Shown here: positions 154-22,186 of the stretch, piece after piece | How positions within the stretch are numbered: position 1 is the stretch's first letter | How the letters are laid out: each line of letters starts with the position of its first letter | Assembly (NCBI GenBank): GCA_026770585.1 | Contig: MU646386.1 | Span: 175,925 to 198,110, forward strand | Length of the DNA stretch: 22,186 bases | Direction: 5' to 3' | DNA from: Baffinella frigidus | Taxonomy: Eukaryota > Cryptophyceae > Cryptomonadales > Baffinellaceae | Program-made: the position numbers and the translations under genes | The notes under the pieces: model-generated | Seen by the model: only the letters and a program-made list of their open reading frames with translations | Told to the model about the DNA's origin: nothing | Databases searched by the model: none

Positions 154-3100
154 CTGCTCGACCACGCCAGGTCACACGCGGGAATTCGCCTGAATCAATC
201 CTGGAGATTTATGCCAGACGTTTTTGCGAGAAATACGTCAAACGTCAACAGCCCAACTGAAATTCCCACTTGTGATCTGGCGTGAGAAAGCCGCTGCACT
301 AAAAACACACAGCTTCGTGGAACTTTCGAGGCCCAAGATTTGGGGGTCACGTGACAAATGTATACTAGAATCCCCTGAAGTCAATTTTCTCGGGGCAAAT
401 TGACTTTTGCAAAAGAAGTTTTGTAGTCCACTGAGTGGTAGGACGCTCACCAACTCCAGTAGCTTCGCGGGGTTGTTAACCGCAGCCTGGTTCTCGACAG
501 TGATGAACGATGCAAAGATCAGCTTCCGTTTGTACTGCCGATGCAGGCTCTTGATTATCGCCTTTTCCCTGTTTAGGGTTTAGGGTTTAGGGTTTAGGGT
601 TAAGGGTTTAGGGTTTAGGGGTTAGGGTTTAGGGTTTAGGGTTTAGGGTTTAGGGTGTATGGTTAAGGTGTAGGGCCCCGCCTTCCGCAGGTTTACCGCG
701 GGTTGAAGCAGAGGGTTTGGGGTTTGGGGATTGATATGTCACAAGCGCCGCAGGGGGTTGAGGGTTGAGGGTCTGGGGTCTAGGGTCTCAAGTTTACCAC
801 GGCTTCAAGGCGCAGAGGGTTCAAGGTTTGGGGGGTGGGATTTCTTGGAGGAGTCAAGTTACCACGGGTTGAAGCTTAAGGTTGAGTGTTCAGAGTTTCA
901 TATGTCGCACCGCGTAGGGTCCAAGAGTTAGGGTCCTGGGTTTAGGGATTACCAAGGGTTGAAGCGGGAGAGCTGGACATCAACCAAAACCACGATGCGG
1001 TCGACCAGCCCTCCGAACCGCGTCGTGGCCTCCATCTGGGTAAGTTGACATCCATAAGTTGACATCTCGGGGCTATGGTAGAGCGGTGTGCTGAGACGTT
1101 GGTCGCCGAAAACAATGAAAAATTGGTGGTGGACGTTTTTGTACCAGCACCGTCAATTTTACCCAATTCCTCGTTATTTCCGTGGCCAACTTCGCTGCAC
1201 ATCGCTCTCTGTGGGAATCGGAGTCTGGTTAGGAGCAACTCGGAGGCTGGTTGTGAGGAACGTTCCTCACAACCAGCCGGTAAGGAAGTTGATGGGGAAC
1301 GCGAATCGCCTCCGTCTGGTACTTCTTCTTCTCTTCGTTATTACTCTCGATACAGGTCGTAAATGAGGCCCTTGAGCCTTGAGTTGAGTGATGAAAAAGT
1401 GGATGGGCCTTAAGAAACGGGCCCGCCTCAGAGACAAGAGCTATAATGGCTCCAGCGTCAAAAGCAATGCCGTCTAGTTATGTGGAAATCGGAGATTCGC
1501 AGGAAACGGGGGATTGGGGATCGACCTCCCGTCTATGCACTCATCAACACAAAAAAAATAAAAACACCTCAAGTGGAAGGGCCTGCACTTGGTCGGGGTC
1601 CGAGGGCCTCCCCATAACATAGCACCCTCGTGAAAAAATCTTTTTGAAAAAAACAGAAGACATCAAGGGGAAGGAGTGGACGGGCCGTGACCATAACCTC
1701 TAGATTTAGGGGTCCCGAAAGTTCCGTAGTCCACTGAGTGGCGAGCGGACGGCCGTGCACTTGGCCGTAGGGGCGTGGTAGGGTCTTCCCACGCAATAGT
1801 ACCCTCATCAAAACAAACCGAACCAAATCAAAATGGCCGTGACTTGGTCGTAGGGTCTTCCCATACAATATAGCACCCTCATCAAATCAAAACAAAACAA
1901 AACAATTCAAATGGGGGGGGGGCTTTACTTGGTCGTAGGGGCACTCGGAGCCGCGCGGCTTGATTACCGCCGCGAGCTCTTGTACCTAGTTTCGGGTTTG
2001 GGGGTTAGGGTTTCTAGTTTCGGGATCCGGGTTTCATGGTTGGGGGAAAGCCAGGTTCAATGATTTGTCAAACACGACCGATACACGGCAGGAGGCAAGG
2101 TGAGACGTAGAGCCATGCGGCTTGATCACCTCCACAAGCTCTTGCAACGGGTTTCAGGCTTCGGGCTTCAGGTTCCGGGTTCTGTGCTCCGGGTTCCGTG
2201 CTCCGGGTTCCGGGTTTTGGGTTCCGAGTTCCGGGTTTCGGTTTTCGGGTCTCGAGTCTTGGGTTTCGGGTCTCGGGGTTGGTTCTATTAAACACACCAG
2301 CGTTTCGGGGTTTGTCAAACCTCAATGGTGCCGGAGCCGTCAACATCGATGCGCCCGATGAGGCAGTCCATCCTCCAACCCCCAAACTCTAAACCCGAAA
2401 CCCGGGATCAACCTTTTTCTGGTTGCGGGTTCCAGGTTTCGAATTTAGAATGTCGGGTTCCGGGTTTCGGATTTCGGGTTCCAGGTTCTGGGTTTCAGAT
2501 TTCGGGTTCCGGGTTTCGGGTTTGAACGACCTCGATAGTGCCGGAGCCATCAACGTCGAGAAGTTCGATAAGGCAGTCCATCTGCGCGGGCGTCAGCCTC
2601 TCCTCGCCCTTGTTCACTGTCACTTTCAGGAGGTTCTTGAATTCGCCCTTGTTCAGCGTCCCGCTCTTGTCGACATCCACCTATTTCGGGTTTAAGGTTT
2701 GGGGTTAGGGTGTAGGGTTTAGGGTTTAGTGTTTAGGGTTTAGGGTTTCGGGTTTAGGGTTTAGGGTTTAGGGTTTAGGGTTTAGGGTTTAGGGTTTAGG
2801 GTTTAGGGTTAAGGTTTTGAGGGTCGGGGTCGTGGAATTCAGGGTAACGTCGACACCCACCTGCGGTTACGTTCCAGGGGTTAGGGGTTAGGAGTTAGGG
2901 TTTAGGTGTTGGGGTTTAGGGTTTAGGGCTTAGGGGTTTAGGGGTTAGGGTTTAGGGGTTACAGGTTGGGGTTTGAGGTTCAGGGTTCAGGGTTCAGGGT
3001 TCAGGGTTTAAGGATTAGGGTTTATGGTTTAGGGTTTAGTGTTCAGGGGTTGGGGGTTGGGGGTTGGGGGTCGTCGAACGCAGGTCAATTTACCATCAGG

Positions 3101-6100
3101 AAATATCTACAGTGGAGTCGGACAGAGTGGATTCCGAAACGACTAGAGGGGATTCATAAATGACTAGAGTGGGGCCGTAGGGCTTCTGAGCAAAACACGC
3201 CGGTCTTTGTTGTCGAGTCCGAGGACTGGTCAAACGTGGTGGTCAAACATATGCGTTTTTTTTCGGGGTCGGAGTGGTCAGACCTCGTCGAAACGCGCCC
3301 TGATTTGCTTCTCGAGGGGATACCTGTGACCCAGAGTGCAGGGTTCAGGGGTTTGGGTGCAGGGTTTGGAGTCACACCCGAACTAGAGGCATGTCATTAT
3401 TCTCTGAAAACAGCTGTGCTCCTGCAGAATTCTGACGGAGATTGTGAGGGGTCATTATTTGGGGTTTGGGGTTTGGGGTTTGGGGTTTGGGGTTTGGTGT
3501 TTGGGGCTTGGGGTTTGGGGTTTGGGGTTTGGGGGTTTGGGGGGAGGAGCTGACAGTTCTGGATCCTTGCGCGGGTCTGCGAAGAAGAAGCGCACTGTCT
3601 TGAGGATGTCCGACACCCCCTCCTGCAGTTTAAACCGGGAACAGGTTCAATTAAAACAAATGGACCTCTATGTGTTCATAGGAGTTGGAAGAAGATCAAT
3701 TAGGGCCCGAAGTAAATTTAATTAGGGCATGATCCGGTTTGATAGTCCAGTTTCTTTTGATTTAAACATGTTCCCGGATGAAGTTGCGTTGAGGGGTTCG
3801 GGGACAGGGTTCAGAGTTGAGAGTTAATAGTTGAGGGTTCAGGGTTAAGGACGTCCGAAGCTTCCTCCTGCATGCAGCCACCAGCCCCTCCATGAACGCC
3901 CCCCCCCCCATCGATTTAATCGCGGCGAGTATTTATGATAAATGTGAGCGGGGATCTCCGATCCGATTTGCAATCAAAATTACTACACACCCGGTTTGGG
4001 ACGTGACCGTCACGTGACCGTCACGTGACCGGAAAATCCAGGTGTGTAGTAATTTTCATTAAAAAACGGATCAGAGATCCCCGCTCACATATTCACCATA
4101 AATACTCGTCCGGATGAGATTCACGGCACTTCCTCCTCCTTGAACAGCACTTCTCCCGAATAGACTGAGACAGAGCTACACATCAGGGGGTGGGAGGCAC
4201 CTCGGTAGGGTAGTTAACAGCGAAGAACTCGGGGGCTTGGATGAGGAGAGGGCGGTAGGCGCGGCTTGGCGCGTTCTTCAGGGAGAGGTGCACCTGCGTG
4301 TGATAAGAAACAAGGCGTGTTTGCGAAGAGAAATGGCGTGCGTGATAAGAAGCAATGTGTCTGATAAGAAACGAGGTGTTTTCCTCAAGACACCAGGAGT
4401 GTTTGCTGAGAGACAACCCGGTGTGCGTTGGATGCGGCGCGGGCAGTAGGCGCGGCGTGGGGCGTTCTGAAGGGAGAGATGCACCTGCCCCGCATCGACA
4501 CATTCATGCTCAAACAATGTTAAGTTGACAGATACTCTAGTGTATTTCACAAGAAACAGTCTATTTTGTATCTCCGATTTGGTGAGACCGGGCGCGTTTT
4601 CGCTCCAAAGTTGACGGATTTGTACCACAGCCCCGGAACTTCAACTTGAGGATAGTCCGTCAACCCAACTGAGGCAGAGCTCGAGCTCTGTTCTTCAGGG
4701 AAAGGTGCACCTGCTCTGTGTCGTGTGTTTGATATGACAAGGTGGGATTGATACGTGTTTGATAAGAACCCAGTCGGATTTTCTCACATTGTTTGATGAG
4801 AAACTAGGTGGGTTTGCTGAGCGTGATTGAGAACAAAACAGGTTTGTTTGCTAAGAGACAAGGCGTGCGGGTTAAGCGAAGTGGAGTGTTTGTGAAGAAT
4901 CATGGTGTGTCTGTCAAGACATATAGCGCGTATGTTGATCAATTTTCAGGGTAAGAATGTGTTGCATGCACCTGCCCCGTGACGAAGGAGTCCATAGGTT
5001 TCGGGTTCAGGGTGTGAGGTTCCGGGTTCACGGTTCAGGGTTTCGAATTCCGGGTTCCGGTTCCGGGTTCCGGGTTCAGGGAGAGAATTGTTGAAGGGTT
5101 AAGGGTTTGAGTGTGTCCGGCTATGGCAGAAAACACAGTGTATTCGCAAAGAGACACGGTGTGCGTGTGAAGAGATGCAGTGTGTTTTTAAGGAAGGGTT
5201 TAGGGCGAAACTTGGGGGTTTGAATGAGCCACGGTGTGCGTGTGAAGAGATGCCGTGTGTTTGTGAAGAAGGGTTTAGGGCTCATTCAAACCCCCAAGTT
5301 TAGCACTAAACCATAAAGGGTTTATGGAGAGAACCTGCCCCGTGATGAAAGCATCCATGGGTTTAGGGTTTAGGGTTTCGGGGGTGAGGTTCTGGGTTCC
5401 GGGTTCCGGGTTCCGGGTTCCGGGTTCCGGGTTTAGGGAGAGAATCGTGTAAGGGTTAGCGGTTAGGGCTTTGAGTGTGTCGGCACCTGCCCCGTGATGA
5501 AGGCGTCCATGGGGGCCTGGCTCTGGCACGCTCTTGAGAGCCCTGAGAGCGTCCCCAACCCGCTCTTCCGCTGCGTCTGCCAGGGTTGAGTGTTGAGTGT
5601 TGAGTGTTGAGTGTTGAGTGTTGAGTGTTGAGTGTTGAGTGTTGAGTGTTGAGTGTTGAGTGTTGAGTGTTGAGTGTTGAGTGTTTAATGTTTAGTGGGT
5701 GGGTTCACTATTTAGGTTTAGGTTTGTTAAGGGTTTGGGTTGAAGGTTTTAAGGTTTGAGGCTCAGGGGTTAGGGGTTAGGGGTTAGGGGTTAGGGGTTA
5801 GGGGTTGGGGTTTTGGGTTTGGGGTTTGGAGTTTGGGGTCTGGAGTTTGGGGTATTGGGTTTGGGGTTCGGGGTTTAGGGTTCGGGGTTGAGGGTAGACG
5901 CCGTCAGTGCCCCGAACCCGATCTGCAACCTAGCAAAAACACCTATCAACAGCAGGAAGAAAGACAGGGTGCCACGACGGCTAGTCCTGCAAACATCTAC
6001 CACCTAGTAACAGCACCTAGTAACAACTATCACTAAACCGACAGTTGTTCCACGCCAGGTTCTTGGGTAGGGTATTCCAGGTGCGGTCTTGGAGCCATTG

Positions 6101-9100
6101 GTGCGTTCTTTGAGCCGTCTTCCTCCACAAAATGACTTTTGAATACCGTTTGCCCTAAAAAAATGACTTTCGAATACCTCCCCCTCCAGCCCTGTGTGGG
6201 TTACGAGCCTCGGCTGCCGCAGCCTCATCAATGCGAGCAACCTACTTGGTGATGTCACAAAACTGAGTACTAGGTGTTGTTGCACCTGGTACTAGGTCTT
6301 GTTGCAACACACCTTACTAGGTGTGTTCCTGGTAACAACACCTGGCAACACACCTACCAACAGCAGGAGGCAACACAGGTTATCACCTCAACGAGCGCCG
6401 CAGCCTCGTCAACGCGCACGCGCAGCATGTGCAGGTCGAAATCCGAGAGTCCCTCCTGATTTCCCGTGCGGAGTTTGTGGTTCAAGTTTTCAGGTTTCGG
6501 GTTTCAGCGTTTCAGGTTTCGGTTTTCAGCGTTTTTCAGGTTTCGGGTTTCAGAATTCGAGTCTCGGGTGGCAGCATGTGCAGGTCGAAGTCCAACAGTC
6601 CCTCCTAGTGTGTGGGGTTTCGGGTTCACGGTTTAGGTTGCGGGTTGAGAATGTGGGGTGCAGGGTTGAGGGTTCAGGGTTCGAGGCAGATCAACGTCGA
6701 TGAGGTCCTCTTGGTTTCCCGTTCGCGGACCCCAAACCCCAAACCCGTGTGTGGGGGTTTACTAACCCCGAAAGGGGTAAGGCTAACCCCGAATGCCTAA
6801 CCTCGAAGGGGTTTTGCTAAACCCGAAAGGGGTTTGGGGGTCAGGGTTTGGGGTTCAGGGTTTAGAGGTGAGGTTGTCCTATTTCCCCGCATGGTTTACG
6901 GTTCGCGGTTCAGGGTGCAAGGTTCATGGTTTAGGGTTGAGGGTGTGGGGTGCAGGGTGTAAGGTTTAGAGTTCAGGGTTTGGGATGTGGGGTGTAGGAT
7001 TCAGGGTGCAGGGTTCATGGTTCATGGTTCATGGTTCAGGCTTCAGGTGTCAAAGATTAAGGTTCAGGGATTAGGGTGTAGGGTGTCGCGTGGGCGAGTG
7101 CCCTCGGCGGGAGGTGCTTGTTGTCTAAGGCTCAGGGTTCAGAGTTTAAGGTGCAGGGTACAGGGTTGAGAATTGGGGTTTGAGATTGCAACGTTTGGGG
7201 TTCATGGTTCAGGCTTCATGCTTCAGGTATCAGAGTTTACGGTTTAGGGTTGAGGGTGTAGAGTGTCACGTGGGCGAGTGCGCTCGGCTCGAGGTGCGCA
7301 TTATCGTCGAAGATGCGCAGGAGGCCGTGACTCGGGTCATGGAGCATCGCGTGACGGCTCGCCTGGTGGTGTGGGGTTAAGTGTTTAGTATTTAGGGTCC
7401 ACGTTGAAGGTGTACGGTTGTGGGGTTTGGGGGTTTGGGGCTTGGGGGGGTTGGGGATTGGGGGTTTGAAGATGCGTAGGAGGCCGTGAGATGGGTCATG
7501 GAGCATGGAGTGGCGACTCGCCTGCGGGGGGTTTTGTATGTGTAAGTTTTTCGGGGTTTGGGGGTGTGGGGTTGGGTTCTGAGGTTTGGGGTTGGCGGTT
7601 TGGGCGGTTGGGGTTTGGGATTTGGGGTTGATGGGGTGAGGGTGAGGAGGCCGTGGGATGGGTCGTGGACCATCGAGTGACGGCTCGCCTGCGGATTTGG
7701 AATTTGGGGGTTTGGGGATTTCCATGGGCTATTCACGAAATCCCTTCGTAGCCCGCTGTGTGGAGTACTAGCGGACATCAAGAAGCGGGCACTTGAGGGT
7801 TTAGGGTTCAGGGTTTAGGGTTTAGGGTTTAGGGTGTGGGGTTTGGGGTTCAGGTTTCGCGCAGCGTGCTGATCTCAGCGGCGAGGTCTGTACCCCGAAA
7901 GGGCGATACATCTACATATTCCACTGTTACCTACAATTAACAGAGGTTCCACGTTTGCTTTAAGACGTCCCACTCTCGACTTTTGTCTGGGTGGGCAGCG
8001 CTCTTCGAGAAGCAAGAGGAACAAGTCAACACATCAAATGCACGTTCCCTTCCTGGCGCAAAAACACGCACCCCAGAGTAAAGCGATCGGAGGCCCATAA
8101 CTTAGCGTGCCGTCTGATGTTTCGTCTCGCCAATTTGGTGAGACCGGGCGCTTGTACAACCAAAAGTTGACGGATGTGTACCGGCACACCCAGCGTGTAA
8201 ACTTGGGAATAGTGCGTGGAGGCAAGTGATGCAGAGGGAGATAACCTGTGAGCTCACTGGTTATTCTTAGTATACGGTGTATACTTGGTGATATACGCCT
8301 CTGGGTAGGTGACCTTTCGACATCTTCTTGTCTCGTGTCGCCTTCCCTGAGTGTATCACTACCGAAAACCCCATCCCAGAGTAAAACGATCGGGGGCCCA
8401 TAACCTAGCTCTGTCCCACTTAGAAGAGCTGGCCATTATTTCGCCCCCCCCCCGAAATTTCACAGGTAAATTTTGACCACCCCCCTATGAAATTTACCTG
8501 CAAAATTTCGGGGGGAGGCCAAATAATGGCAAGCCCAAATTGCACTGGGACAGAGCCAGGCTTCCTTTCGCGTGCAAGAGGAAGCCACTTGACTGACCAC
8601 ACAGCGGACTTCGAGGGGATTTTGAAAAAACCCTAAGCGATAAGACCTGGAAACCTACGGTAGGCAACCCGTAGGGGCATAGGCCCATAACCTGAGTCGG
8701 GGCATAGGCCAATAACCTGAGAGCGTGCCACTGCGATGCGCCGGGTGACGTCCTTCTCCTGGTCCTTGCCCTGCACCCTGCAGTAGGGTTTGTGTGGTTA
8801 GTCAACCGTGGTATGTGTATTATATGGGATATGTATTATAATGTATTATATGGGATATGTATTATAATGGTATATGTATTATATGGGATACGCATTATAA
8901 TAGTATATGTATTATATGGAATATGTATTGTAATGGTATGTGTATTATACTGGTGTGTGATTTCTGCTCTCGCGATCCGCCGGGTCACGTCCCTCTCCTG
9001 ATCGGTGCACTGCACCCTGCCGTAGGGTTTGTGTGGTTAGTCAACCGTGGTATATGTATTATATGAGATGTGTGTTATAATGGTATATGTAATATACTGG

Positions 9101-12100
9101 TGTGTGCATGTTAGTATAATATAAAGAATGAATTCAAAGTGTGATATGGAAGAAGTAAAGGAACAATATACCGAATTAATAGAGCAGTCTATCTGCGTAT
9201 TTCCGGATACATCAGAGTAGATTTTACACACCGCAATAATAGACCTCCGCTCTCGCGATGCGCCGGGTAACGTCCTTCTCATTGTCCGTGCCCTGCAGCC
9301 TGCTGTTGGGTTTGGGGTTTGAGGTTTGGGTTTAGGGTTTAGGGTGCAGGGTGTAGGGTGTAAGGTTTAGGGTTTAGGGTTTAGGGTTTAGGGTTTAGGG
9401 TTTAGGGTTTAGGGTTTAGGGTTTAGGGTTTAGGGCTTAGGGTTTAGGGTTTAGGATTTAGGGTTTATGGCTTCAGATTTAGGGGTTCCTTGCCGTGGTG
9501 TGTGGTTAGTCACCACTGGTGTGTGAGCTCCGCCCTCGAGCGACCTCGGCACATAACACGCCCCTATGTGGCTTAATGTTTCGGCTTCAGGGTTTAGCGT
9601 TTAGGGTTTAGGATTCATGGTTTAGCGTTTAGCGTGTGAGTGATCGGGGGTTAGGGTTGAGGGGTACGCACCTGGCTGGGATGGCGCGTAGGAGGGCTCT
9701 AATCAGCGTGCACTGCTGGGTGTGGAGGGCGTGGAGGGTTGCGTGCGTGTACGCCACCCCCGCACCCCTGCAGGCAGAACCCACACACCCCACCCCCCAA
9801 CTTCCCAACCCCCCTTCAAGGTTCAGGGTCAATGGCTAGCCTTTGTCAGGGTGTAGGCCGTTGTCAGGGTTTGGAAGAGAGAGATTCGGACGGGCGCCTC
9901 GCAGGGATCGCGTGGGTTTAGGGTTTGGGGGTACGCACCTGGCTGGGATGGCGTGGAGGAGGGCCTCGATGAGCGTGCGTTGCAGGGTGTGGAGCTCGTG
10001 CAGGGTGGCGTGTGTGTACGCCACCGAGGCGGGCACGGGCAGGACTAGCACAATGTCGTCCGCCCTGCCATGCGGGGGTTAGGGGTTAGGGGTTAGGGGT
10101 CAGGGGTGTGGGGTTTGGGGTGCGGGGTGTGGGGTTTGGGGTTTGAGGTTTGGGGTTTGGAGTTTGGAGTTCGGGGTTTGGGGTTTCGGGTGTGGGGTTT
10201 GGGGGTTTGGGTTTGGGATTCAGGGTGTGGATATTAATGGTGACTAGGAGAAGGTTCATGGTTCATGGTTTAGGGTTTCATCGTTTCCCAGGAGTTGAGG
10301 GTCGAGTGGCAGACCCGCAGCGCCCGTCCCACAACGCGCGCTGCGGTTCTAATATCCACGGCAGGTCGTAAACGGGAATTTCAGAACGCAACGGTTCGTT
10401 TCGCGGTACTAAATTGTACGTACTGAGCCGGTGACATGCGACGGTTCGTCCTTTGCACATCGTCCCTCTTCCAAACATCATTCTTTCCATGTCCGTGTGG
10501 TATCAAATTAACAAAAAGACTCATAACTGAAATTCCAGTTTACGTTCCAGTTTACGGACTTTTTACGGACGGCCGATGCGGTACACACCCTGAAATATAG
10601 TATCTGCGGATGGGCGCTGCGGAAACAGTGGCTATTTTTCCGACCTGGAGACTTGGGTGACGGTGTACACAATCGAGGGGATGTCGGAGAAGTGCTTGTG
10701 CAGGAAGTTCTGGCTCTGTCTCAGTCTATTTGGGCTCAACATTTGGGCGAGCCCGGGCTCGTTTCCGCTCCAAAGTTGACGAATTTGAACCACACAACCA
10801 GCATGTCAACTTAGGAAAAGCCAGCCACGCGGACTGAGGTAGAGCTGGAATTTCGACCTGGTGACTTGGGTGACGGTGTACACAGTCGAAGGGAAGTCCG
10901 AGAAATGCTTGTAGAGGTATTCGCTCGGCTCCGAGGCTCTCGCGAGGGGGTCCGCCCGCACGTGCGTGAACGTCACCTGATAACGCGACGGTTCGCTGTT
11001 AAAAGTGTTTCGTGGTACAAACCCGTACAAATCGTAAATCCTAAAGTTGATTCCGCGATTTTGTGCCTGGGAATCACGCAAAAGTGATCACCCGGCCGGC
11101 GGAGAACACTCGTGTGTGCCAAGTACAATCTTTTAGACGAAACGTTGCGTGTGAAGTAGAGGTATTCGCTCGGCTCCGAGGCTCTCGCGAGGGGGTCCGC
11201 CCGCACGTGCGTGAACGTCACCTGATAACGCGACGGTTCGCTTTAAAACGTGTTTCGTGGTACAAAATCCACATTGTTGCGGCAGAGCCTATTGACTTTT
11301 GGCGTGATTCTGGTACACATCTGGAATTTGACATGTGGTTATATTTGGTGATTCCTGATGCAATTATGTTCGATGTCCCACTCGAGGCTGGAAGTGGGAC
11401 TATTTTAAAAGTGGGGATTTTATATTTAGTACCAGTCACGGGCATGCTTGGTCACGTATCTCAAGTTATAACTTGAGATACGTGACCAAGCATGCCGGTA
11501 TTTTTGTAAAAATACTACACAATTCTTTTTTTTCTTCACTTGTAAAAGAATGACTATTTTAAAATAGTGACATTTCTAGCCTCGAGTGGCCTGGCGATGA
11601 TGCTCTCGGAAATCAGTCAAGTTTCCCCGCAACCGTTCCAGCACCCCACAGAATGCCGTGATTAAACCGGTGCCAAAAACACGGAACCCAAAGTCCCCCG
11701 CACTCAAAACTCAATGATTATGCATTATGCGAAACATAAACACGTCCCCGGGAGAACCTAGCTCTGACCCAGTCTATTTGGTCTCACCAATTCGGTGAGA
11801 CCAGGCTCTGTTCTGCTCCAAAGCTGACGGATTCGTACCACACTCCCAGCACGTCAACTTAAAAATAGTCTGACAGCCAACCCGACTGAGGCAGAGCTGG
11901 AGGACCTGGTATCGACCCTGGACGTCCCCCTCAGTGCGCTTGCCGAGCACCCCCTCGTACATGCGCCCGACAGCTAGGTAGTCCTCCGAAGGGACCGGAG
12001 TCCAGCTCTTGATCTCTCCGTTCTGCCGTCAGGAGACAACGTTATTATCCGTGAGGTTATGAGGCATCAGAGAGAGAGACCTTTGTTCTCGAATAAAGGT

Positions 12101-15100
12101 CTCAGCTCTTGATCTCTCCGTTCTGCCGTCCGTGATTTGGGGGTCAGAGTTTCAGAGTTTAGGGGTTAGGGGGAGCAACCAGGCTGTGTTCCCCTGCCGA
12201 GAGAGAGAGAGAGACCGTGATTAACACCAACGCGGCCGCCATGTATGCACCCCCACACAGGCTATGTCTGGCACCTGTGAGAGAGATTCTTGCGCGACAA
12301 ACGCAAGGGGAGGGGGTCAGGAGGGCTTTTTGTATGTGCTTTACACGAGTGGATTTGGAAGGCGTGATGCTTTACACAAGTGGGTTTAGGGTCAAGCGAG
12401 TTACGGTGTCGAGCATCAAGCGCCGTTCAGTCTTCCCGTGTTAACAACACAGGGCGACACCTGAACGCGGTGTCAAGCTTTCACGAGAGGAGTGGGCACG
12501 AACATTAGAGATAGGACCCTACGGTAGGCAATCGCGTAGGAGCATAGGGGGTTTCCTACGGATAAGGTAACGGAAAGTCGGTGGATTATCCACCAAACAT
12601 CCCTTCGTAGCCCGCTGCTTGTGGGCACGAACCTGGGACGTGAACACCTTGGCGGCGCCTCGGTACACCGCGCGGCACGGCAGCCCGTCCAGCGACGCTG
12701 CAGCCCTGTGAGAAGGCACGACGCTCTCACTTAGAGGTCGCTGAAAAGAGAGGAAGGAAATCGAGTAGTCTTTTAGTCCCGACTCTGTTCTCGGAGCCGA
12801 AGCGATGGATGGGTTGTTCTTCTTCACAAGAAATCCTGCAACACTGCAGAGTACGGCAGCCCGTCGAGCGACGCTGCAGCTCTGCGGTCACGGGCAGAAT
12901 CTGAGACTTTCTAAACCCTTGGTTTCACGGACACACTCGAAAAGAATCTCAACCTTCCCCGGCCCTGTTGCAGCAGCCTAAAAGACCGAAAAGAGTTTCA
13001 AAACTTTACAAAGAATGTTGTTCTACACGAATGTTTGAATGTGTACAATACTTGCAGACCGCCGCGGTACACTGCGCGGCACGGCAGTCGAGCGACGCTG
13101 GAGACCTATTCCCGATCGGTACGGACAGGGGATACTCGCCAGGAATGACACGCGCCGTGTTTTCGCCAGTTGCGTTACACGTGACCCGGGGTTTGGGGTT
13201 TGGGGTTGGGAGTTTGGGGTTTGGGGTGCGAAGGTTGGGGTTTAGGATTGAGGGTTGCGGGTTTAGGGCTTACTAGGGTTTGGGGTTTAGAGTTTAGAGT
13301 TTACCGGCGGAGTTTGGCGTCCTCGGAGTCGTCGAGGTGGAAGAGAAACTCGTCGAGTGAAACGAACCTGCGTTCAGGATACAGGTTGTGAGGACTACGC
13401 AACGATGACCTGTGCACCAAATCCCTCTGTTTTTAAAGTCAACTCGCCTTCAATCGCCCACAAATCTGTCAACTTATCCGGATTCCGGATTAAAATATTT
13501 TTTAGAAGTGCAGGAATAATAGACAGACTCAACTAAAATACACCTGTTTGATACACAGGCCATCGTTGCGTGGGATGATACAGGCCATGAACATCATACA
13601 GGTTATGAGCTCCTAAAGCTTAACCACTCTTACCCCTAACCCCTCAACGCTCAACCCGAAGTATCCTGAACAGGTGATAAAGAGTCTACAGGTTATGAGG
13701 TCCTTTACCCTGCACCCTAACCCCGAACCCCTATCCCTTAACCCTCAACCATAGCCCCTAACCCCAAAACCTAAACCAGACGCACTGAACCTGCGAGGAC
13801 GCGAGGTCAGTAGGTTAAAACCCAAACCCTAAACCCTACCACTTGGTAGGCTACGGGGCACGTCCCTCCCCGGAAATCTAGAGAGGGACGTGACACATTT
13901 CTGGCTTTTGGCGTGTTTCTTGGGCAAGAATTCAATAATTAACTTAGGCATGGTTCCTCGTAGTGTTCCGAGCGGTGCTGAGTGGCCCCGACATCGACAC
14001 GTTTCCCGAACAACGTCTCCACCGATTCGACCGAGACGGGCGGGGCGTGTTTGTACCACCACACAGCGGGCTACAAGGGGATTGTCGGGCTCTGAGAGCC
14101 CGATTTTCCGTTCCGTAGGAACCCCCCCCATGTCCCTACGGATTGCCTACCGTAGGGTCCTAGGTCTTATCGCTTAAGGGTTATTCGAAATCCCTTCAAC
14201 GCCCGCTGTGTGGTAGGGTGACTAAACCAGAAAGGGTGTGAAACAGCTAAAGATTAATTTAGTCAACATGCGTCACGCAATTCAGCGGATGGGTCGTGTT
14301 TGGCAACTTTCGACAAGGAAGGGCCCAAAACTTTTGAATGTTGACTTTTGAATGACCCCCCTTAGAGCCCTGAGTGGGGCCGCACCCGTCACTGTTGACG
14401 TCCATGCGGTTGACTATTTCCCCCAGCATGCCAGGCCCGACCACCAGTCCTGCGACCGTTGGAGTCAAAACGTCAGTCCTGCGACTGTTCGAGTGGAAAC
14501 GCCAGCGTACAGGTTATGAGGTCCTTTCCGCTGCGACGGTTCGAAGACGTCGCTTTCGGACACTACTTTAGACGTGATGGTGGTCAATCAAAAGTTGCCG
14601 TAAGGGCAGGTTCCCGGAAATTCCGGGAAGTTGGCAAAAGTTGACTCGAGGCCTCATGGGAGTGAACTTTTGCGATTGACCCCCTTCCCGTCTAGCGTAG
14701 CGTGACCCACGAACGAGATGTAACCCAACGTTTGAAACGGCAGCGCTGCAACGCTTCGGATCGAGAGACGTCAGCTCTGCACCGATTTGGGTCCAAACGG
14801 CAGTGCGGCGACTGTCCAGCTCTGCCTGAGTTTCATTCCGGCCCGTCCTTGCAACTATTTAAAAACAGAAATCCAGTACAAAAGGACGAACAGAAAGCCT
14901 TTTGGACGAGCCAGAATAAAACTGAGACATACCTAGACTGTTCGGGCTCAGGGGTCGCCGGATTGGCGGAGGAGCTCTTCAAGACCCTGGCGGCACTCGG
15001 CGCCAGACGGCCATCCCTCACTCGGGTTGGCAGACTATTCTGGAGTGGACACGCCGGGGTTCCGGTGCAAACCAGTCACGTTTTCCCGTGCTCGCCAGAT

Positions 15101-18100
15101 TGGCGAGCCCAAACAGACTGCGACAGAGCTACCCAACGCACCGGATTGGCGGAGGAGTTGTTCGAGGCCCTGGCGGCACTCGGCGCCAGACAGCCGTCCG
15201 TCCCCGTCGGTGTCCATTGACGCGAATGACTTGTACAGAGCACGTGCCCCTGCCCCAACCCTTCGTCAGTGCATTGCTAAATTTGGCCGGAAGTTTGGTG
15301 CCAAAGTCAACCCCCATGCAAACTGTCAACTTCGGGATTTGAAGACGCCAGATTGGAATGACTTGTACAACGCGCGCGCCCCTGCCCACCGCACCGTCAG
15401 TTAGCAAAAGACCCACACCTGGTAAAGTATTCGGGGGAAACTGTGGGAAGGGAATGGAGTGTGAATGTTGGGAAGCATCTAGTGGCACTCGGATCTGAAG
15501 CCCGCGGTAGTGCGGTTATCAGATCTAGTGCGGTTTTCGGACCGGTTGGCCACAAAAATAATCAAACCGGTCTCAAACAGTGGCAACTTGACAGTCTAGT
15601 ACCAGCATGGTCAACTTTTGGCGTTGCTCCATTCTTTTCACGCGGCCAACAGATGCGAAAACCACGCTACCTGTTTCGCCCTCGGCCGTCTTGAGCGATC
15701 GGCCCTTGAGGGACGCAACCTCCGTGCACACCTGCACAGCACGGCACACACCCGGGTTGTCAACGTCGTATCGCCGTTGGACTACGGTTCCTAGGCCCAC
15801 GTCGCTTGTAGGTGTTGGACTACGGTTCCTGTGCCCAAGTCGCTTGTAGTGTTGACAATCCGAGTGTACGCCGCACAACTAGCACCACATGAGCCTGGAA
15901 AATCGTCCACAGTCCTGCGGTGGCCTAAACCCTGACCCTTGCTCCTTAAACCTAAACCCTCATCCCTAATCCCCAATCCCTGAACCCCACAAATCCATAA
16001 GCCTCGTAACCTGGCGAAGCTTCTTCTCGATCTCAGCGACTGTCTCCATCTCCCGGCACGCCTCCCCCCCCCCTAAACCCTAACCCCTAACCTCCAACCC
16101 AAAACCCCTAAACCCTGGGGGGCATAACCCTAAATCTCGGGCCTCGTAACTTGACATAGCTTCTTTTCTCAAAAATAGCACCACAGAAGCCTGAAACGTG
16201 TCAACAGTCCTACCCTAGACCCTAAATCCATGAGCCTCGTAACCTGGCGAAGCTTCTTCTCGATCTCAGCGACTGTCTCCATCTCCCTGTACGACCCCCC
16301 CCCCGACATTTCGGAGAAAAAAACGTTTTTTTAAATTGACGGGAAAAGCCAATTGGGCTTTCTAGAATGTTCTTACGACCCGGAGGAAAATCCCCCCCGA
16401 CAAGGTGTCGGTTGCAGCTCAGCAGTTCCGCGGACTCATAACCCTAGACCCTACACCAATGAGCCCAGCAACCTGGCGAAGCTTTTTCTCGATCTCAGCG
16501 ACTGTCTCCATCTCCCGGTACGACGCCCCCCCCGACTCCGCCTGGGATTAAGGTCGAGGGCTCAGAGTTTCGCCCACAGAATCACCTGCGCCAGCCCGAC
16601 CAAAAATCCGCGCGAAATGTCGGTTAATAAGATGTTTTTGTAACTGCACAGAGCATTTGTAATTATTAGTGTTCGTGGAACTGATAATTAGTGTTCGTGG
16701 TACTAATTATTGGTACCACAAACATGAATGGGCCGACTGCCTCCATCTCCCGGTACGACGCACTCCCCGACTCCGCCTGGGATTAAGGTTGGGGGTTCAA
16801 GGTTTCGACACCGTAAGGGTTTAGGTTAAACACCGTAAGGTTTTAACACCGTACGGTTTTAGGATTCGAACACCGTAGGGTTTTAGGATCTGAACACCGT
16901 AAGGTTTTAGGTTTCAACACCGTAAGGTTTCAACTCCGCAAGGTTTTAGGATAAATGGTTCAGGTTTCAGGGTTTGGGGTCTGGGGTGTAGGGTTTGGTG
17001 TTTGAGGTTCAAGGTTTGGGCCTCCCGGTACGCCCCCCCCCCCCGACTCTGGCTGGGATTAAGGCTTGGGAGTTAGGGTTTCGCACACAGAATCGCCTGC
17101 GTCAACCACGCGGTGGGCTTCGAAGGTCGACCGAAAATCCGCGCGAAATCTCGGTTAATAAGATGTCCTTGTACTGTACAGAGTAATTGTGAATTAGCAC
17201 CACGAACATGGATGGGCCGACTTCATCCGGGAACAAGTATTTTGAATTTTTAAAATATGAACGAAAATTACGACACAATTGCTTCGGACGTGACCCGTTG
17301 TGTAGTAATTTTCATATCCGGCTTTTAAGATAAAAATCCTTGTTCCAGGATGAGACTGTCTCCATCTCCCGGTACGCACCCCCCCCCCCACCGAATCCGC
17401 CGGCATTAGTGTTGAGGGTTTGGGGCCTAGGGTTGAGGGTTTATGTCGCATCTCTCCCCCTAGCGTGAAGCGGTCGTGTTTGTCAACTTATTAAATCTCG
17501 CTTTTCACCGTTTGGGGTTTGAGGTTTGGGCCTCCCGGTAGTCATTCCCGCAGGAATCTCCTTGGGATTTAGGGTGTCAGTTGTTTCGAGTTTGGGGTTT
17601 GGGGCGGACGCCGGCATCCGTGTTGATAAATGTGGGCTACACGCTGTTTTGTGACTTAACTTTTACGCCTACTTCCGGCAACACAGTGAGCTTCGAAGGA
17701 AACTTCGACCGAGACTCCGGTCGAAATACCGATGGATAAGATGTCTTCGTACTGAGCGATTCTCAATTAGTACCACGAAACTGGATGGACTGATGTGCGA
17801 AGCCCACTGTGTGGGTGTTCAGGGTTTCGGGTTTCGGGTTTAGAGGGTTGTCTCTGCGGCGCGGAAAATGACGGTTTTGGGGGGTTATAGGGTTGAGGGT
17901 TAGGTGTTTAGGGTGTGGGGTTGGGGGTTTGGGTTGTAGGGGGTGTCTCTGCGGCGCGGAAAATGACGTGGTTTGGGGGGTATAAGGTTCAGGGTTTCGG
18001 GTTTCGGGTTTCGGGTTTCGTGTTTCGTGTTTCGTGTTTCGTGTTTCGTGTTTCGTGTTTCGGGTTTTGGGTTTCGTGTTTCGTGTTTCGTGTTTCGTGT

Positions 18101-21100
18101 TTCGGGTTTCGTGTTTCGGGTTTCGTGTTTCGTGTTTCGTGTTTCGTGTTTCGGGTTTCGTGTTTCGGGTTTCGTGTTTCGTGTTTCGTGTTTCGTGTTT
18201 CGGGTTTGAGGGGATTGCCTCTGCGGCGCGGAAAATGACTTCGACTGCCTCGTCGTGCTGCTTTTGCGCCATGTCCTGGTTTAGGGTCGAGGGTTTAGGG
18301 CTTAGGGCTTAGGGCTTAGGGTTCAGGGTTTAAGGTTTGGGGGTTAGGGGTTAGGGGTTAGGGGTTAGGGGTTGAGGGTTCGGAGTTAGGGTTTAGGGTT
18401 TAGGGTTTAGGGTTCAGGGTTGAGGGTTGAGGGTTGAGGGTTTAGGGTTTAGGGTTTAGGGTTTAGGGTTTAGAATTTAGGGTTTAGACGCCAGCAAAAC
18501 AACCTCTTGACGAATCGTGAAAGCGGATTCAGACCCCTAGTCGCAGCGTGAAGGTGGCTCTCGTTCACAGGCTGGAGCTTCACCAGCCTCTTGACACTAG
18601 CTACTGAGCCCTTGACTGGGGGGGGGGCAATTGATGGGTGCCCCTGCGAGCTGGCGTTTCACCAAAGCTTCAATTATGGTTCAGGGGTTGGCGTTTCGGG
18701 TCTAGGGTTCAGGAGTTAGGTTCAAGGATTTGGGGTTCAGGGGTCAGGGTTAGGGTTTGGGGTTTGGGGTTTGGGGTTTGGCGGCTAAGGTTCAGGGTTT
18801 AGGCTGGTGAGGGAGGGTTCAGGGTTTAGGGTTTAGGGTTTAGGGTTTAGGGTTTCGGGTTCTTTCTCACCAGCTGGAGCCTGGCAAACGCGACGTCCTT
18901 CACCGCGTCGGAGGGTTAGGGGGTAGGAGGTAGCGTTTGGGGGCTCGGGTTTGAGGTTTGGGGTTTAGGCTACATGGTTTAGGGTTTAGGGTTTAGGGTT
19001 TAGGGTTTAGGGTTTAGGGTTTAGGGTTTAGGGCTTAGGGTTTAGGGTTTAGGCAAAAGGGTTTGGGGTTTAGGGTGTGATCACCAGCTGGAGCTTGGCA
19101 AACGCGACGTCCTTCACCGCGTCGGAGGGTTTGGGGGTAGGGGGTGGCGTTAGGGGGCTCGGGTTCGAGGTTTAGGGTTTAGACTACAGGGTTTAGGGTT
19201 TAGGGTTTCGGGTTTCGGGTTTAGGGTTTAGGGTTTAGGATTTAGGGTTTAGGTTTTAGGGTTTAGGGTTTGGGGTTTAGGGTTTGATCACCAGCTGGAG
19301 CTTGGCAAACGCGACGTCCTTCAACGAATCGGAGGGTGAGGGGGTAGGGGGTAGCGTTAGGGGGCTCGGGTTCAAGGTTTAGGGTTTAGACTACAGGGTT
19401 TTGGGTTTGATCACCAGCTGGAGCTTGGCAAACGCAACGTCTTTGACCGCGTCGGCGATTCCCTTATGTGCCTTCTTGAGCGCCTAGTTTAGTGGTGAGG
19501 GTGTGGTGTTTAGGGTGTAGGGTTCAGGGTGTAGAGTTTAGGGTTGAACGTGTGGTATTTATGGTTTGGGGGATTGGGTGTGGGGTTTGGGGTTTGGGGT
19601 TTGGGGTTTGGGGTTGAGAGTGTAGAGTTTGGGGGTTTGGGTTTGGGTTTAGGGTTTAGGGATTGGTGTTTAGGGGCTGCGGTTTAGGGTTTTGGGTTTT
19701 GGGTCAGGGTTTAGGGTTGATGGTCGAGGGGTTCGGGGTCAGGGTTCAGGGTTCAGGGGGTTAGGAGTGCCTTGGCGTCCGCGGCAGGAGAGTCGATAAT
19801 CGTCTTGTTAATGCGGATAGCCTTCTCCGCCCCGTCCATCTTGCTCTGCGCGAAATAGCATATACTAGTTAGCGTTGGGGGAAATATATGAAGGTTTGGC
19901 GTTGGGGGAAATATATGAGGGTTTACGGTTAGAGGACATATATTAGGGTTTAGGGTTAGGGGGTGAGGGTTCAGGGTTTTGACATCGGATAAAGGAGAGT
20001 CGATCATCGCCTTGTTGGTGCGGACTGCCTTCTCTTCCTCTATCCGTTAAGTGGCCAGGGGGTCTTAAAACACCCACGCCAGGTCCTAGGCAGGTCCTAG
20101 GGCCATACGGTAGAGCGTATGAGCCTACTGGCCACTTCAGGGATAAGGCAACATGGTGTTGGATGAGCACATTGGCGGCGGTCTCCTACCCCCTACCCCC
20201 AACAACCCACCCCCCACCCCCTACACCTTCCACCCTACACCCTACACCCTGCACCCAGAACCCTACACCATACACCCTACACCCTGCACCCTACACTCTA
20301 CACCCTACACCCTACACCCTGCACCCTACACCCTGCACCCCACACCCCCACACCCCTACACCTTCCACCCTACACCCTACACCCTACACCCTACACCCCG
20401 CACCCTACACTCTACACCTTACAAACGTACACCCCAACGCCACCGGCGCGGATCGTGTGGCATCCGCGCTCTCGGACTATCCTTAAGTTGACACGCTGAT
20501 TCCATCGTACACATCCGTCAACTTTAGAGCGGGAAACAGTCCGGGAAGGCCAAATTGGTGAGACAAAATAGACAGAGACAGAGCTAGAAATCTCCACCCC
20601 CTCAAACGCCACCTGCGCAGATTCTCAAGTTGACACGCTGATTTACTCGTACAAATTCGACAACTTTGGAGCGAAAGGGTGCAAAGTGGACAGATGAAAT
20701 AGACTGAGACCTGCGCGGATCCGGCGGCGGCCTGAAACTTTGCGCGGAGCCACACAGCGGGCTACGAAAGGCTTTTCGGCCCAAATCGGGCCACCTTTCC
20801 GTTACCTTATCCGTAGAAACCCCCCTATATCCCTACGGGTTACCTACCGTAGGGTCCTAGGTCTCATCGCTTGGGGCACCTGCGCGGATCTGGCGGCGGC
20901 TTGGAACTTAGCGCGGAGCAAATTCGCGGCGGCCTCCACTTTCTTCTTCGCCTCCTTTGCGTGCACGTTCGACAACTCTTTCGTGGCGCTGTCCTGCACC
21001 ACCTGATTTAGGGTTTAGGGTTTACATATGGTGGATTTGTTAAGGGTGTATGAGCGTACCGGCATGGGATCAGGGTGTATGGTTTGGGGTTTAGGGTTCC

Positions 21101-22186: not shown

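What the first reader, a model, noticed from the sequence alone, without database searches (positions are those of the whole stretch)
451..22186. Exon half-copies with strict polarity: 5' halves upstream, 3' halves downstream
Seen directly at least 16 times. In introns upstream of an exon, the degenerate copies keep its acceptor AG and first part (exons 3, 7, 9, 10, 12, 13, 14, 17, 18, 20, 21, 22). In introns downstream they keep its last part and often the donor GT (exons 2, 3, 5, 6, 7, 9, 14, 15, 17, 18, 19, 22, 23, 24). Exons 14 and 17 are flanked by both kinds at once. The exceptions are the near-full copy of exon 4 at 19983-20044 and full-length copies of exon 16. Ordinary whole-exon duplication would not give this polarity. 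It implies repeated duplication of segments straddling exon-intron junctions, and hence intron growth from the splice sites inward. I know of no description of this pattern as a gene-wide rule.
Basis: partly seen in the sequence, partly recalled or inferred. Interest (0 to 1): 0.92.

Follow-up and report, generated by a model that had tools for sequence, protein, structure and literature searches.

The report
Half-exon copies beside their own exons
In this unnamed eukaryote, stretches of DNA spanning exon-intron borders have repeatedly been copied next to themselves, so intact exons are flanked by broken half-copies on the side that geometry dictates, a fossil record of how introns grew.

Summary
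In a minus-strand EF-hand gene with 29 small exons (drawn by eye) I found 34 copies of exon pieces in the introns, 0 antisense. Of 31 that keep an exon end, all 16 upstream copies keep the 5' end and all 15 downstream copies the 3' end; 3 are internal, 0 wrong-side. A transcript-derived protein supports five exons and lacks two copies. In seven other stretches an ab initio test gave 32 pairs for this polarity, 1 against, 21 undecided. No special rule is needed: any direct local duplication with one end in an exon and the other in the adjoining intron leaves an intact exon plus a half-copy on exactly that side; duplications inside or across whole exons would be selected away. Homology runs into the intron in part of the pairs, so DNA was copied. 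Most young pairs are spaced, not abutting, which suggests error-prone break repair with filler, though the spacers are not distinctive. The kind of duplication is known; its density here, about one half-copy per exon, and its polarity across a gene are what I did not find described. Organism unidentified; most exon borders lack RNA support.

The parts
22132..22186 (-). E1, exon (5' end outside the window)
   Evidence: read by eye, donor GTATGT
21831..21893 (-). E2, exon
   Evidence: AG..GT, open frame
21727..21750 (-). copy of E2 3' part + donor, downstream
   Evidence: 88%
20880..21002 (-). E3, exon
   Evidence: AG..GT, open frame
21266..21317 (-). copy of acceptor + E3 5' part, upstream
   Evidence: 83%
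20711..20750 (-). copy of E3 3' part + donor, downstream
   Evidence: 90%
20751..20877 (-). spacer between E3 and its downstream copy: part of a dispersed element (E1-type)
20135..20185 (-). E4, tentative exon, no clear donor
19771..19845 (-). E5, exon, GC donor
19993..20034 (-). internal/near-full copy of E5, upstream (unresolved exception)
   Evidence: exon bases 19-60 of 75, 86%
19415..19483 (-). E6, exon
19292..19332 (-). copy of E6 3' part + donor
   Evidence: 85%
18871..18911 (-). copy of E6 3' part + donor
   Evidence: 90%
18219..18275 (-). E7, exon, GC donor
17947..17967 (-). copy of E7 3' part, donor lost
   Evidence: 100% over 21 bp
17852..17872 (-). copy of E7 3' part, donor lost
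   Evidence: 100% over 21 bp
16473..16541 (-). E8, exon
16734..16776 (-). copy of acceptor + E8 5' part, upstream
   Evidence: 93%
17022..17049 (-). copy of E8 5' part, upstream
   Evidence: 93%; intron homology continues
17354..17391 (-). copy of E8 bases 6-42, upstream (classed internal)
   Evidence: 95%
16244..16307 (-). copy of E8 bases 6-69 + donor, downstream
   Evidence: 95%
16011..16069 (-). copy of E8 bases 11-69 + donor, downstream
   Evidence: 93%
15671..15731 (-). E9, exon
15142..15249 (-). E10, exon, EF-hand
15356..15381 (-). copy of acceptor + E10 5' part
   Evidence: 85%
14959..15019 (-). copy of E10 3' part, donor now GC
   Evidence: 89%
14386..14449 (-). E11, exon, EF-hand
13305..13367 (-). 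E12, exon, EF-hand
12633..12705 (-). E13, exon
13060..13103 (-). copy of E13 5' part
   Evidence: 91%
12853..12880 (-). copy of E13 5' part
   Evidence: 96%
11906..12022 (-). E14, exon
12103..12122 (-). copy of acceptor + E14 5' part
   Evidence: 28 bp incl. 8 bp intron, 100%
10858..10976 (-). E15, exon
11156..11266 (-). copy of 45 bp intron + E15 5' part (66 bp), upstream
   Evidence: 97%, spacer 134 bp
10645..10699 (-). copy of E15 3' part + donor
   Evidence: 89%
10717..10850 (-). MITE-like element E2 filling the spacer downstream of E15
   Evidence: 8-bp target duplication read by eye
9939..10064 (-). E16, exon
9672..9758 (-). copy of E16 3' part + donor
   Evidence: 86%
8717..8777 (-). 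E17, exon
9255..9297 (-). copy of E17 5' part
   Evidence: 91%
8972..9016 (-). copy of acceptor + E17 5' part, intron homology continues
7856..7887 (-). E18, tentative exon
7270..7362 (-). E19, exon
7469..7521 (-). copy of acceptor + E19 5' part
   Evidence: 85%
7645..7688 (-). copy of acceptor + E19 5' part
   Evidence: 84%
7090..7117 (-). copy of E19 3' part, intron homology continues over 142 columns
6387..6455 (-). E20, exon
6571..6604 (-). copy of acceptor + E20 5' part
   Evidence: 91%
6216..6235 (-). copy of E20 bases 40-59, downstream (classed internal, weak)
   Evidence: score 30
5487..5576 (-). E21, exon, frame uncertain
5335..5358 (-). copy of E21 3' part + donor
   Evidence: 92%
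4972..4995 (-). copy of E21 3' part + donor
   Evidence: 92%
4201..4293 (-). E22, exon
4428..4484 (-). copy of acceptor + E22 5' part
   Evidence: 84%
4690..4710 (-). copy of acceptor + E22 5' part
   Evidence: 95%
3550..3622 (-). E23, exon, 3' end uncertain
3284..3323 (-). E24, exon; an EF-hand match begins here and runs into E25
2531..2680 (-). E25, exon, EF-hand; 3' end supported by transcript protein P0001
2321..2372 (-). copy of E25 3' part + donor, absent from P0001
1929..1985 (-). E26, exon, supported by P0001
2110..2144 (-). copy of E26 5' part, absent from P0001
953..1035 (-). E28, exon, supported by P0001
451..568 (-). E29, exon, supported by P0001
64..153 (-). E30, exon, supported by P0001, which continues past it

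Best explanation
The half-copies are relics of many local, same-strand DNA duplications, tens to somewhat over 100 bp long, that straddled an exon-intron junction. If the duplicated segment X begins in an exon and ends in the next intron, the first X completes an intact exon and the second X is left downstream as '3' half + donor'. If X begins in an intron and ends in the next exon, the second X completes the exon and the first is left upstream as 'acceptor + 5' half'. So the polarity is automatic (inference from geometry). Duplications inside an exon or of a whole exon change the mRNA and are removed by selection (inferred). The half-copies then drift (shown: frameshifts, lost splice sites). 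Most young pairs are X-spacer-X rather than abutting; in five inspected cases the spacer is largely a piece of a dispersed element, in others a telomere-like array. The likeliest source is error-prone repair of staggered or paired-nick breaks with filler DNA (inferred; about 0.45 within this explanation, against 0.3 for tandem first). Each event lengthens an intron without touching the protein.
For: Polarity in 31 of 31 end-keeping copies, 0 wrong-side, 3 internal, 0 antisense of 34. Ab initio test in 7 other stretches: 32 agree, 1 against, 21 undecided; opposite strand 6, 3, 27. Local repeats within 1 kb are mostly direct: 94 against 6 inverted in 20 stretches, 11 of them all N; in the window 43 against 6. 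Intron-side extension beats the 95th percentile of mismatched flanks in 9 of 34 copies (E6 x2, E7, E8, E15, E17, E19 x2, E25) and is present in 30 of 67 junction-bearing pairs, so DNA and not spliced RNA was copied. P0001 lacks the two copies it spans. Pfam EF-hand pairs run across E10-E12 and across E24-E25-E26 when these exons are joined. All 5 indels in 32 copies shift frame. Of 31 repeat families at >=95% identity none has a gap <=30 bp; abutting ones found by another program number 8, of 23-32 bp. A dispersed element fills the spacer nearly end to end in 5 cases.
Against: Spacer make-up does not differ from control intervals (76 spacers: 17 heptad, 19 dispersed, 40 other; 760 controls: 157, 159, 444), so the filler step is weakly supported. 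Downstream of E15 the element has, by eye, its own 8-bp target duplication, as if it had entered an already abutting pair. 25 of 34 copies do not extend into the intron beyond the null's 95th percentile (telomere-like arrays inflate that null); 37 of 67 pairs lose homology at the splice site, 10 of 26 even at >=90% identity, which random breakpoints do not predict well. Copies differ from exons more at codon position 3 (17.5%) than at 1 and 2 (7.9, 6.3%), N:S 67:73, somewhat more than exon-side synonymous drift alone would give. No ortholog or strain without a duplication was available.
Confidence: 0.78

Rival explanations
1. A variant inside the same frame: plain abutting tandem duplication first, spacers inserted or expanded later.
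For: Abutting repeats exist: 8 at >=95%, 18 at >=90% matches. The element downstream of E15 carries, by eye, its own 8-bp target duplication, and without it the two copies nearly abut. Telomere-like arrays can expand.
Against: 0 of 31 families at >=95% identity have a gap <=30 bp, though this search misses offsets under about 50 bp. Abutting pairs at >=95% are short, 23-32 bp.
Confidence: 0.3
2. Copying of a nearby segment into a break some distance away (template switching), so that the spacer is the original intron.
For: Direct orientation, short distances, many non-abutting pairs.
Against: It would place 3' halves upstream and 5' halves downstream about as often; seen 0 of 31 in the window and 1 of 33 decided pairs elsewhere.
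Confidence: 0.05
3. The copies are functional: alternative or decoy exons kept by selection for splice-site-bearing half-exons.
For: Splice dinucleotides are kept in many copies; third-position excess; homology often stops at AG or GT.
Against: 5 of 5 indels shift frame. P0001 contains neither of the two copies it spans. Some copies have lost AG or GT, for example both of E7.
Confidence: 0.07
4. Assembly or gene-model artefact.
For: Many N gaps in this assembly; exons drawn by eye.
Against: Repeat identities are spread from 75 to 100%; a transcript protein confirms five exons and EF-hand pairs span several joins; same pattern in unselected stretches.
Confidence: 0.03

Closest known systems
[quoted passage not shown] PMC4974935, passages seen)
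   Same: Direct duplication of a segment with an intron-exon border; splice signals inherited from the parent.
   Different: There a new intron arises, reported as single cases; here existing introns carry inert half-copies, about one per exon.
Patch-mediated double-strand-break repair duplications in rice (Vaughn and Bennetzen 2014; paper not held, known here from a passage of PMC7407515)
   Same: Insertions of 10-1000 bp as tandem or non-tandem local duplications, ascribed to asymmetrical nicks and end joining.
   Different: That passage says nothing of polarity around exons; the cause was not tested here.
Interstitial telomeric repeats inserted at breaks (PMC7215372, passages seen)
   Same: Telomere-type repeats inserted at breaks, with direct duplication of the target at 3 of 66 horse loci.
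   Different: Here the arrays are abundant, degenerate and strand-biased, and the duplications go beyond 100 bp.
Introners (PMC9860276, passages seen)
   Same: Short elements with TIRs and TSDs beside splice sites (element E2 here).
   Different: A family of similar introns was not shown here.
Direct repeats near intron borders (Rogers and Bendich 2025, PMC11782384, abstract seen)
   Same: Direct repeats at exon-intron borders explained by break repair.
   Different: Theirs are 4-30 bp; here 20 to over 100 bp, recognisable as exon halves.

Membership tests
[quoted passage not shown]
[quoted passage not shown]
   no ortholog or strain found
Patch-mediated break-repair duplication | Local, direct orientation | tested here: met
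   94 direct against 6 inverted; 43 against 6 in the window; exon copies 34 against 0
Patch-mediated break-repair duplication | Duplicates abut or flank filler DNA | tested here: inconclusive
   spaced pairs dominate, but spacers are not distinct from background
Patch-mediated break-repair duplication | Derived from an empty single-copy site | not testable with these tools
   no second strain
Introner | Many similar introns with shared ends at splice sites | tested here: inconclusive
   E2: 12 copies aligned, TIR; 8-bp TSD at two sites and nearness to donors read by eye
Interstitial telomeric sequence | Telomere-type repeat arrays inside chromosomes | tested here: met
   119 TTTAGGG/CCCTAAA heptads in the window; that TTTAGGG is this species' telomere repeat is assumed

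The most novel reading that the evidence does not exclude
The duplications are not random in place: breaks or insertions are aimed at splice junctions, perhaps through transcription- or splicing-linked nicks, so that introns in this lineage really grow from their splice sites and leave half-exons as time-stamped layers.
Probability: 0.2. Interest if true: 0.85.

Novelty: new variant of a known kind. Interest (0 to 1): 0.5.

Why it matters
Half-exon copies are datable relics of single duplication events: the conserved exon serves as the reference. A genome with about one per exon would let one count, age and map break-repair duplications inside genes, separate mutation from selection (the missing whole-exon and in-exon classes), and test how introns grow. 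It also warns gene finders: splice-site-bearing half-exons can be mistaken for exons.

Tried and rejected
Homologs: one search gave one transcript-derived protein (P0001); two searches gave none. P0001 residues 135-552 were not found in the assembly; the window is bounded by N on both sides. Pfam scan of L024 in six frames found nothing at E 0.01.

Simple abutting tandem duplication was my first model; moved me to X-spacer-X, then one search showed that the BLAST searches miss short abutting repeats, so I report both. An excess of junction-straddling duplications over uniform placement (20% straddling, 65% intron-only, 15% full or other expected; detected 100 of 110 and 102 of 110 simulated) was not used as proof, because intron lengths at the time of the events are unknown. 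'Spacers are special DNA' was rejected by the control. Retro-copying of mRNA was rejected because homology runs into introns in part of the copies. E27, first drawn as an exon, was dropped because P0001 joins E26 to E28 directly. E21's 2 copies were left out (frame unsure). Organism: Chromera velia (recalled) and Amorphochlora amoebiformis (abstract: 214 Mb against 382 Mb) were considered without support; the rRNA search did not complete.

Full report
What the window is. The window is G000:C84:175925-198110 of an unnamed 382-Mb assembly. It holds part of one minus-strand gene. I drew 29 exons (mean 81 bp; introns mean 706 bp) by eye from three-frame prints, choosing AG/GT borders and frames that fit. 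Joined peptides of E9-E14 and of E24-E30 match Pfam EF-hand pairs that run across E10-E12 and across E24-E26, which also supports those joins; the coiled-coil reading of the first part is by eye. A search of 5.8 billion proteins gave one hit, P0001, named as an MMETSP transcript. It matches E25 (3' part), E26, E28, E29 and E30 in order and lacks the two half-copies in that interval. The rest of P0001 is not found in the assembly, and the window is bounded by N on both sides.

Noticed in passing
window, introns; also L014, L016, L017, L024, L027: Telomere-like heptads are strongly strand-biased: on the coding strand CCCTAAA 112 against TTTAGGG 7; 55 C-rich arrays against 7 G-rich, no intron with both. 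L014, L016, L017, L024 and L027 are also one-sided, while L008, L019 and L025 are mixed. The canonical C-rich heptad has no AG or GT, so it is splice-inert; selection or a transcription-linked bias could explain it.
   Followed up: partly
window 4557-4685, 8120-8213, 10710-10862, 11758-11910, 20479-20579: A ~135-bp MITE-like element (E2) with terminal inverted repeats and, by eye, 8-bp target duplications at two sites; by eye several copies sit within about 11 bp of a splice donor, introner-like.
   Followed up: partly
window 14059-14175, 20750-20872: A second dispersed element (E1), often truncated, ending in CCCGCTGTGTGG.
   Followed up: partly
window 20041-20146: By eye, a palindromic insertion between E4 and the exception copy of E5; the two flanks might once have been one open frame.
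   Followed up: no
window 19765-19771 and 18213-18219: Two exons appear to use GC donors (E5, E7).
   Followed up: no
G000:C84:148001-175924 and 198111-216917: The window is bounded on both sides by N, so the rest of the gene is not readable.
   Followed up: yes
L016, L024, L025: Stretches chosen without looking carry coding-like pieces with the same kind of half-copies; peptides of L016 and L024 found no homolog.
   Followed up: partly
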